A stretch of 50,266 nt of DNA from contig NZ_JAHOPH010000027.1 in the NCBI RefSeq assembly GCF_019798055.1, forward strand, positions 1 through 50,266, given 5' to 3'. The position numbers were made by a program, and so were the translations under genes. The first letter of the stretch is position 1. The number at the start of each line of letters is the position of its first letter. Source of the DNA: Salsipaludibacter albus (GTDB lineage Bacteria > Actinomycetota > Nitriliruptoria > Nitriliruptorales > Nitriliruptoraceae). This document shows positions 42,407 to 50,266 of this stretch, in pieces. Below the pieces are notes generated by a model that searched no databases, was not told the DNA's origin, and saw nothing but the letters and a program-made list of their open reading frames with translations.

Positions 42407-42674
42407 CTGGCGGCGGTGCTTGGCCGAGGGTCGCAGCCGCGAAACGTCGTGGAACGCGGCTTCCGCCATGACGCATACGTCGCACCCCTGCAGCCCAGGG
42501 CCGGCCCCGGGTATTCAGATCGGACCCTCTCTCTGTCAAGACCGGGTCTCGCTGTCTGATTCGCTGGGCATGGAAGGACTGTCCGTCGCCGATGGATCCG
42601 GTGCGGACTAGGGTTGAGGGCGGCGGTTCGGGATGTGACTTGAACCAAGCGCCGGTGTCAGGGATGCAAGCCGG
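42407..42674. other. 268-bp region between the cupin remnant and the IS110 transposase
   Basis: No gene is recognised. It should hold the right end of the IS110 element. IS110 ends have no inverted repeats, so the border cannot be set by eye. Confidence 0.4.
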
Positions 42675-43742
42675 TCACGCGGCCTTCGGGCTCGTTCCCT
42701 GGTGTCCATCCCGGACCGTCTCACGTCGAGCGTCGGCGACCATGCGCCGATGGCTCACGTCCGACAGCTGCCGTTTGAGCGACCGGACCGCTTCGCCGTG
42801 GCTCTTGTGCTGGGCGATCTTGCGGTCGTAGTGGGCCCGACCCTTGGCGCCGTGACGAATCTGGCTGATCGCGGCGGCGTGGATGACCTTGTTGAGCTGA
42901 CGGTTGCCGCCCCGGTTCAACCGATGGCGGTGCTGGTCGCCAGACGAGGCGTCCAGCGGCGCGGTGCCGTTGAACGACGCGAAGTGACCCCGGGTGGGGA
43001 ACCGTCCGATGTCATCGACAATCGCGACGATGGTGGCCGCGCCCGTTTCGGCGATCCCAAAGACTTCGGTCAGGCTGGACCCGTGGACGCCAAGCGCCTG
43101 GCGGACCCGCGCCTCGGCGGTCCTGATCCGGCTGTTGAGCCAGCGCCATTCCGCCAGCAGGTCCTTGACGGCCTGACGACGCGCGGCATCCGCGGGGTTG
43201 TCGGTGCGGATACGGCGCAACGCCGCCGAGGCCCGTTTGACCGTCAGGGCCTTCTTGGCGCCGCCTTCGGACAGTTCGGTGAGCCGGACGTGGAGCCGGC
43301 AGATCACCTGCTGGCGGCGTGACACCAGATGCCAGCGGCTATCCAGCAGCACCCGCAGCTCCGCCGGCGCGTCGTCGCGGCAGACCTGCCGGAGCCGGGC
43401 GTGGGTGGCGCCGACGATCGCGACCGCGCGGGCATCGAAGCCCTCGGTCTTGCGACCCGAATGGCCCGACAGCCGCCGCGTCCGGGCGGTCATCGTGGCC
43501 GGAACGTCCACCACGGTCTCGCCGGCGGCGACCAACTGTTGGCCCAGCAGCCGACCCAACCCGCTGACGTTCTCGATCGCGAAGATCCGGTCCGGCCACC
43601 GGTCGGCCCAGGCCAGCAGCCGGACCAGTTGTCGCCGGTCCGCAGCCAGACGCAGTTGATCGTGGATCTCGTCGTGGGCATCGAGCACCACCGCGGTGTG
43701 GGACCGTTTGTGGGCATCGATGCCGATGATGGTTGCAGCCAT
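42675..43742 (-). CDS. IS110 family transposase (DEDD recombinase)
   Basis: A 355-residue recombinase. The RuvC-like N-terminal domain opens with TIIGIDAHKRSHTAVVLD (catalytic Asp9) and has Glu57 in FAIENVSGLG. The C-terminal Transposase_20 domain has VFGIAETGAATIVAIVDDIG, FASFNGTAPLDASSGDQ and RLNRGGNRQLNKVIHAAA, including the serine region required for strand exchange. It appears full-length. GAGGAGG is placed before the ATG at 43742. An 86-bp internal piece of this gene recurs exactly at 50181-50266. Confidence 0.93.
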   Translation of the reverse strand: MAATIIGIDAHKRSHTAVVLDAHDEIHDQLRLAADRRQLVRLLAWADRWPDRIFAIENVSGLGRLLGQQLVAAGETVVDVPATMTARTRRLSGHSGRKTEGFDARAVAIVGATHARLRQVCRDDAPAELRVLLDSRWHLVSRRQQVICRLHVRLTELSEGGAKKALTVKRASAALRRIRTDNPADAARRQAVKDLLAEWRWLNSRIRTAEARVRQALGVHGSSLTEVFGIAETGAATIVAIVDDIGRFPTRGHFASFNGTAPLDASSGDQHRHRLNRGGNRQLNKVIHAAAISQIRHGAKGRAHYDRKIAQHKSHGEAVRSLKRQLSDVSHRRMVADARRETVRDGHQGTSPKAA

Positions 43743-44050
43743 GTCGACCTCCTCGTCGAGGGCAAGGGACGTCGCGGTCGACAGACCTGATGTGAGCCAG
43801 CGCTCCGCAATCCTCTCTCGAGTCAGACCGCGACCAGGACAGGCCCTGCCGGGCGACATTCCGATCCGGAGTCAGCCCTCACGAGGGCGACAGGTGGATA
43901 CAGAGTCAGCCCGACAGGACCCCGAGCACAACGAGTCGCGAACCCGCTGCACCTACCCCCACCTAACCATCAGGTGGCTATCCGAGGCAGTTGGCGGATG
44001 ATCACGAGAGGCGTCGGTCAATGGGCGAGGTTCACGCAGGTTGATGTACC
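43743..44050 (-). ncRNA. Candidate IS110 bridge RNA region
   Basis: IS110-group elements encode a bridge RNA in the non-coding end upstream of the transposase, and its loops pair with donor and target DNA. This stretch lies in that position and has no gene. On the minus strand it shows a GCCCTC/GAGGGC hairpin (43876-43889), a GCCC/GGGC hairpin at about 43842-43853, and three copies of CTGACTC (43820-43826, 43869-43875, 43903-43909). The exact RNA ends are not known. Confidence 0.45.
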
Positions 44051-44218
44051 CATCATGTCCTGTTGAGTCCCCTCCGTCTCGGAGGCACGCCCTGGGAGCA
44101 GTCCGTTGTGGGCGCGCGCGAATAGCCGTTCAGCGCGCGGATGTCTGGGCGACAGGTGGTGTGAGCGCTGCGAAGGTGTGTCTTCTCCTGACTGATCGAG
44201 TCCAATAGCCTCGGTTGT

Positions 44219-50180: not shown

Positions 50181-50266
50181 GCCAGCAGGTGATCTGCCGG
50201 CTCCACGTCCGGCTCACCGAACTGTCCGAAGGCGGCGCCAAGAAGGCCCTGACGGTCAAACGGGCC
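50181..50266 (+). mobile_element. IS110 transposase fragment at the window edge
   Basis: These 86 bases are identical to the complement of 43230-43315, inside the IS110 transposase gene (part coding for QQVICRLHVRLTELSEGG). Similarity stops abruptly at 50180/50181, in mid-gene. The orientation is opposite to the other copy. The rest of the element, if any, is outside the window. Confidence 0.88.

What the first reader, a model, noticed from the sequence alone, without database searches (positions are those of the whole stretch)
43743..44218. Likely bridge-RNA locus upstream of the IS110 transposase
The 476-bp non-coding flank on the 5' side of the transposase is where IS110-group elements encode the RNA that guides insertion. 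It contains two small hairpins and a thrice-repeated CTGACTC on the transposase strand. A second, partial copy of the element in the window gives a chance to compare sites.
Basis: partly seen in the sequence, partly recalled or inferred. Interest (0 to 1): 0.5.

Follow-up and report, generated by a model that had tools for sequence, protein, structure and literature searches.

The report
Bridge RNA gene of an IS110 element
The stretch in front of this jumping gene encodes a two-loop guide RNA whose loops match both the element's own ends and the DNA it is inserted in, so it is a clear new example of a known RNA-guided jumping gene; some relatives aim such guides at the guide-RNA genes of other jumping genes.

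Summary
The finding is right in substance and too wide in extent. The element is an IS110-group insertion sequence in a Nitriliruptorales-like genome. Its left end lies at 43971-43973, so only 43743-43973 of the 476 bp belongs to it; the rest is flank. On the transposase strand, 43770-43953 folds into a 5' stem-loop, a target-binding loop and a donor-binding loop. Forty-two pairs are supported by strong covariation in 12 homologues. A covariance model built on these finds the same RNA just upstream of the transposase in 72 of 77 further loci. In the window the left target guide matches the left flank at 8 of 9 bases, the right target guide includes a 7-base exact match to the right flank, and both donor guides match the element ends at 8 of 8. 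Across 84 flanks the left target guide fits its own flank far better than other guides do (0 of 20,000 permutations). The thrice-repeated CTGACTC opens three of the four guide strands; its GAC closes the loop against a GTC and covaries. This copy's transposase has Glu where nearly all relatives have Asp at a predicted catalytic site. In passing: about a dozen relatives sit inside the donor-binding loop of another IS110's bridge-RNA gene.

The parts
42675..43742 (-). IS110-family DEDD transposase/recombinase, 355 aa
   Evidence: Pfam DEDD_Tnp_IS110 E 1.5e-17 and Transposase_20 E 1.6e-18. Residue 100, by position a DEDD residue, is Glu (codon at 43443-43445, read) where 91 of 95 matched rows have Asp.
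43925..43953 (-). 5' stem-loop of the bridge RNA
   Evidence: Helix 1 of alignment A3, 84.7% of cells paired, 5 of 10 pairs with double changes.
43841..43923 (-). Target-binding loop (TBL): outer stem, LTG strand, inner hairpin, RTG strand
   Evidence: Helices 2 and 3 of A3, 92.8% and 95.2% of cells paired; model R1 hit 43770-43923, 143.5 bits.
43892..43900 (-). Left target guide TATCCACCT
   Evidence: 8 of 9 match to the left flank plus core TAGCCACCT at 43972-43980; 7 of 100,516 9-mers in the window match as well.
43857..43870 (-). Right target guide strand TCCGGATCGGAATG
   Evidence: Its reverse complement contains TCCGATC, present at the right junction at 42518-42524; 5 of 100,520 7-mers in the window are TCCGATC.
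43770..43835 (-). Donor-binding loop (DBL)
   Evidence: Helix 4 of A3, 95.1% of cells paired, 8 of 12 pairs with double changes.
43808..43819 (-). Left donor guide GAGAGAGGATTG
   Evidence: GAGAGAGG occurs twice in the whole window: here (43812-43819) and at the element's right end 42526-42533.
43784..43793 (-). Right donor guide ACATCAGGTC
   Evidence: Complementary to ACCTGATG at the left end 43968-43975; these are the only two places in the window.
43903..43909 (-). CTGACTC copy 1: opens the LTG strand; GAC pairs with the GTC that follows the RTG
43869..43875 (-). CTGACTC copy 2: opens the RTG strand; GAC pairs with the GTC that follows the LTG
43820..43826 (-). CTGACTC copy 3: opens the LDG strand; GAC pairs with the GTC that follows the RDG
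43972..43973 (-). Left core dinucleotide CT at the left end
   Evidence: End of homology with the C9 copy and junction of LTG and RDG matches.
42523..42525 (-). Right end and core, fixed only to one or two bases (TC, or GT one base inward)
   Evidence: Homology with the C9 copy reaches 42517; junction of LDG and RTG matches.
42534..42539 (-). TTGACA directly before the left donor sequence; candidate -35 box of a circle-junction promoter
   Evidence: TTGACA within 8 nt before the donor match at 61 of 74 right junctions. No conserved -10 box was established.

Best explanation
Window 43766-43971, read on the minus strand, is the bridge-RNA (seekRNA) gene of an IS110-group insertion sequence that spans about 42525-43971 plus core bases. 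The RNA is transcribed ahead of the recombinase, most likely from a promoter made when the excised circle joins right end to left end (inferred). It folds into a 5' stem-loop, a target-binding loop and a donor-binding loop. The donor loop pairs with the element's own two ends, the target loop with the two sides of the insertion site, and a recombinase tetramer exchanges strands at a CT-like core (inferred from IS621). Shown here: fold, covariation, location, guide complementarity, element ends. Inferred: transcription, recombinase binding and recombination. CTGACTC is repeated because one loop-closing motif opens the LTG, RTG and LDG strands. This copy may be catalytically weakened by an Asp-to-Glu change.
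For: Homology ends with the C9 copy; five identical copies of a relative at five different sites in G007 give its ends. Consensus fold of 12 homologues: 42 pairs, 92% of cells paired, 23 pairs with double changes, 0 of 500 shuffles, slid controls 35-49%. Model R1 hits just upstream of the transposase in 72 of 77 wider relatives at E <= 1. Left target guide: own 5.31 of 7 against 2.10 for other guides, 84 flanks, 0 of 20,000 permutations; with one element per distinct guide 5.07 against 2.48, n = 44, 0 of 20,000. Right target guide: own 4.87 against 3.41, n = 63, 0 of 20,000. In the window all four guides match. The GRC/GYC loop-closing pairs covary at all three CTGACTC sites in 72 sequences.
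Against: No expression data. No empty site was found in 35 genomes of the family. The right core reads TC or GT, not CT. Guides do not fit their flanks in every copy: the remnant L135 scores 2 of 7 for its left target guide, C9 and L036 4 of 7 in the fixed register (6 contiguous if shifted one base, read by eye), and 18 insertions score under 5. Five of 77 relatives gave no model hit. The window transposase has Glu100. Rfam has no match at gathering score.
Confidence: 0.95

Rival explanations
1. The region is only a structured 5' leader or attenuator of the transposase mRNA, with no guide role.
For: It lies directly upstream of the start codon on the same strand and folds strongly.
Against: Loop sequences match the element ends and genomic flanks, and vary with the flank across elements; the fold is the two-loop form described for IS110 bridge RNAs.
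Confidence: 0.02
2. CTGACTC is a DNA-level repeat, for example recombinase binding sites at the left end, rather than part of an RNA.
For: Three short direct repeats near one end resemble iterons.
Against: Each copy sits at the same structural position in the RNA and its GAC covaries with a distant GTC (GAC/GTC to GGC/GCC) in 72 sequences; no copy lies at the right end.
Confidence: 0.03
3. An IS1111-type element with the guide RNA downstream of the transposase.
For: The right non-coding end is long, about 150 bp.
Against: The right ends of 9 relatives give no consensus fold (4 pairs, -0.81 kcal/mol); the guide RNA is found upstream.
Confidence: 0.01
4. A bridge-RNA gene of an element copy that can no longer move.
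For: Glu at residue 100 in place of the Asp of nearly all relatives.
Against: The RNA scores 143.5 bits against the model (it is a member by construction) and all four guides still match.
Confidence: 0.35

Closest known systems
IS621 and IS110-group bridge RNAs (Durrant et al. 2024, PMC11208160; structural paper PMC11208158)
   Same: RNA in the left end, 5' stem-loop plus two internal-loop hairpins; 5' strand of each loop matches the left side, 3' strand is complementary to the right side; CT-type core; pseudo-symmetric TBL and DBL are described in PMC11208158.
   Different: Guide and stem sequences; the GRC-TC loop-closing motif is repeated at three guide strands at sequence level; a 150-bp right end in this clade; right core not CT.
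seekRNA of IS1111 and IS110 elements (Siddiquee et al. 2024, PMC11187229)
   Same: The same RNA under another name; longer non-coding region upstream in the IS110 type.
   Different: The IS1111 type has it downstream and has subterminal inverted repeats; the guide RNA here is upstream.

Membership tests
IS110-group element with bridge RNA | DEDD RuvC-like domain (PF01548) plus C-terminal PF02371 | tested here: met
   Both Pfam models above their cut-offs; one DEDD position is Glu in this copy.
IS110-group element with bridge RNA | Longer non-coding end upstream of the transposase, holding the RNA | tested here: met
   About 230 bp upstream against about 150 bp downstream; convincing model hit upstream only.
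IS110-group element with bridge RNA | 5' stem-loop plus two hairpins with internal loops | tested here: met
IS110-group element with bridge RNA | First loop matches the target, second loop the donor ends | tested here: met
IS110-group element with bridge RNA | Core dinucleotide (CT or NT) shared by target and donor | tested here: inconclusive
   Left core CT; right core TC or GT, register not fixed.
IS110-group element with bridge RNA | Promoter rebuilt across the right end-left end junction | tested here: inconclusive
   TTGACA before the donor end at 61 of 74 right junctions; no conserved -10 box established.
IS110-group element with bridge RNA | RNA expressed and bound by the recombinase; RNA-dependent recombination | not testable with these tools
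   Needs experiments.
IS1111 group | Guide RNA downstream of the transposase | tested here: not met
   No consensus structure in the right ends; guide RNA upstream.
IS1111 group | Subterminal inverted repeats of 7-17 bp | not tested
   No dedicated search of the two ends was run.

The most novel reading that the evidence does not exclude
Relatives of this element have turned their bridge-RNA guides on other IS110 elements. In 11 loci the insertion point splits the left-donor-guide strand (both halves present) of another IS110 element's bridge-RNA gene. In 8 of these 11 all three marks are present: victim transposase on the opposite strand to the left, victim target-binding loop antisense to the right, and the split guide. 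Three kinds of victim are hit and the inserted element's right target guide follows the victim (TCATAG or TGATAG, TCAAGAG, TTGATAGG). An RNA-guided mobile element thus uses the conserved guide frame of competitors as its landing site and breaks the competitor's guide gene. The window element itself is not nested.
Probability: 0.85. Interest if true: 0.6.

Novelty: new member of a known kind. Interest (0 to 1): 0.38.

Why it matters
It adds a Nitriliruptoria branch of IS110 bridge RNAs with four readable guides, a covariance model and natural guide-target pairs across many actinobacteria. The nested relatives, if confirmed, would be RNA-guided elements that target the guide-RNA genes of other RNA-guided elements, a directly testable case of competition between mobile elements.

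Tried and rejected
Empty sites of the window and C9 insertions were sought in 35 genomes of the family and none was found. The G007 target was tested as a repeated element: one exact match and 24 with one mismatch, against 4 for the control pattern, so not a highly repeated REP-like family. The 150-bp right end was tested for a second structured RNA: no consensus fold. A second bridge-RNA-like structure near the window element was sought with filters off: nothing convincing, next best E 0.093. Rfam at gathering scores gave no match. A first alignment used a wrong strand for one sequence and was discarded. The NEST tag printed uses too loose a pattern and was not used; nested loci were judged by the split guide strand (TGRC...ATAG or AAGAG, then GGAG or GGGG), the opposite-strand transposase and the antisense model hits. 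Searches of the open-access library for 'bridge RNA' + IS110 + nested (0 papers), 'another IS110' (18 papers hold at least 4 of 5 terms, 0 occurrences of that phrase in any) and 'within another IS' (7 papers hold at least 3 of 5 terms, 0 occurrences) gave no report of nested insertion; most subscription papers are not covered.

Rows dropped before counts. The left-guide test started from 91 elements (86 model-hit loci plus five G007 copies); 85 had enough upstream sequence and a right-donor match of 6 of 8 or better, and 84 had distinct flanks. The right-guide test used 63 distinct right junctions out of 79; some of those right junctions are probably misplaced (those without TTGACA). The junction was placed by the donor guide, not by the target guide that was tested.

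Full report
What is there. The window is the whole of contig C20 of a genome of 79 contigs. The closest named relative among the loci fetched is a Nitriliruptorales MAG (L046). On the minus strand, 42675-43742 encodes a 355-aa transposase with both IS110 Pfam domains. A second copy on contig C9, 76% identical, aligns from window 42517 to 43972, which places the element at roughly 42525-43971.

Ends. In a related genome held as one contig (G007), five identical copies of a 47% relative sit at five different sites; they share one block and differ outside it. Their ends (CT-GATGG on the left, TTGACACACAGAGGG on the right) correspond to those of the window element (CT-GATGG at 43967-43973, TTGACAGAGAGAGGG at 42525-42539). 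The left core is CT. The right core cannot be fixed to the base (TC or GT).

The RNA. Twelve homologues were aligned. RNAalifold gives a 5' stem-loop and two hairpins with large internal loops. Counting 42 pairs of that structure: 92% of cells paired, 23 pairs with changes on both sides, 0 of 500 shuffles reaching any of the five observed measures, slid versions 35-49% paired. A covariance model of the two hairpins (R1) finds a match on the transposase strand just upstream of the transposase in 72 of 77 further actinobacterial loci at E <= 1, all but one of them at E below 1e-4. On 72 matches aligned by the model, 95.6% of cells pair and 29 of 35 pairs have double changes; that alignment leans to the model.

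The guides. In the window the LTG (TATCCACCT) matches left flank plus core TAGCCACCT at 8 of 9. The reverse complement of the RTG strand contains TCCGATC, found at the right junction. The LDG GAGAGAGG matches the right end at 8 of 8 and the RDG is complementary to the left end ACCTGATG at 8 of 8; each of these two 8-mers occurs in the 50-kb window only at its end and in the RNA. Across elements, the junction was placed by the donor match and the target guide was then scored at a fixed offset. Over 84 flanks the left target guide matches its own flank at 5.31 of 7 against 2.10 for other guides, 67 of 84 at 5 or better, 0 of 20,000 permutations. With one element per distinct guide (n = 44) it is 5.07 against 2.48, again 0 of 20,000; among the 12 aligned elements 5.33 against 3.18, 0 of 20,000. 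The right target guide is weaker but clear: 4.87 against 3.41, 38 of 63 at 5 or better, 0 of 20,000. Results against: the remnant L135 scores 2 of 7, C9 and L036 4 of 7 in register, and 18 listed insertions score under 5.

What CTGACTC is. The three copies open the LTG, RTG and LDG strands. In each case GAC pairs with a GTC at the far side of the loop: LTG-side GAC with the GTC after the RTG, RTG-side GAC with the GTC after the LTG, LDG-side GAC with the GTC after the RDG. Across 72 sequences the middle pair is G-C in 40, 56 and 57 and A-T in 9, 11 and 14. The LTG-side pairs were not part of the model used for alignment. At the outermost LTG-side pair 19 sequences have no standard pair and seven have a gap; at the middle LTG-side pair two are unpaired and 19 have a gap. 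The window thus carries GGGCTGACTC-guide-TGTCGCCC twice in the target loop. Pseudo-symmetry of the two loops is already described for IS621 (passages of PMC11208158), so this is a sequence-level form of a known structural feature, not a new mechanism.

How it most likely works. As IS621: the excised circle joins right end to left end and may rebuild a promoter (TTGACA lies directly before the donor end at 61 of 74 right junctions; a -10 box was not established). The RNA is made, is bound by the recombinase, pairs through the donor loop with the circle junction and through the target loop with the site, and strands are exchanged at the core. Transcription, binding and exchange are inferred from PMC11208160 (abstract and sections 5, 6, 7 and 12 read) and PMC11208158 (passages). 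The window transposase has Glu at position 100; of 95 matched rows (redundant loci included) 91 have Asp, three are the window itself, and one (L113) has Asn; 13 further rows did not match the search motif and were not scored. By position this is one of the DEDD residues (IS621 numbering recalled), so this copy may be weakened.

Clade feature. In most compact relatives the transposase stop codon TGA lies inside TTGACA at the very end of the element, whereas in the window's clade about 130-155 nt separate the stop codon from the donor end. No conserved RNA fold was found in this extension.

Nested relatives. The model also gave antisense matches just right of the right end in 12 loci (L012, L059, L060, L063, L068, L071, L077, L081, L082, L112, L116, L119), the best at E 4e-7 and several above 0.01. 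A second IS110-type transposase lies on the opposite strand left of the element in 11 loci (L012, L059, L063, L068, L071, L077, L079, L081, L106, L112, L116). Joining the flanks shows both halves of a left-donor-guide strand meeting at the insertion point in 11 loci (L012, L063, L068, L071, L077, L079, L081, L082, L112, L116, L119); L059 and L060, from one strain, show only one half. Eight loci have all three marks. Victims are of three kinds and the inserted element's right target guide follows the victim's sequence. The library searches named in Tried and rejected found no report of this.

Verdict. The finding is a real bridge-RNA gene, a new member of a known kind. The by-product, guide RNAs aimed at other elements' guide-RNA genes, is the more surprising part and deserves its own study.

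Noticed in passing
L012, L063, L068, L071, L077, L079, L081, L082, L112, L116, L119 (also L059, L060, L106): IS110 elements inserted inside the donor-binding loop of another IS110 element's bridge-RNA gene; the inserted element's right target guide follows the victim's left donor guide.
   Followed up: partly
window 43443-43445: Transposase codon 100 is Glu where 91 of 95 matched rows have Asp, by position a DEDD catalytic residue.
   Followed up: partly
window 50181-50266: 86 bp identical to the transposase interior (43230-43315) joined to an ABC-ATPase-like reading frame at the contig end; a truncated copy or an assembly chimera (the gene name is by eye).
   Followed up: no
L135 (G001:C40:4061-4684): Internally deleted remnant with both ends and an intact-looking bridge RNA, 87-90% identical to the window element in its three matched pieces; its left target guide does not fit its left flank (2 of 7).
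   Followed up: partly
right junctions of L048-L125: In most compact relatives the transposase stop codon TGA lies inside TTGACA, which is also the candidate -35 box and directly precedes the left donor sequence.
   Followed up: partly
L045 and L012: Right donor guide and left end change together (CATGAGG with CCTCATG in L045; AATTCAGG with CCTGACTT in L012), which looks like natural donor reprogramming.
   Followed up: no
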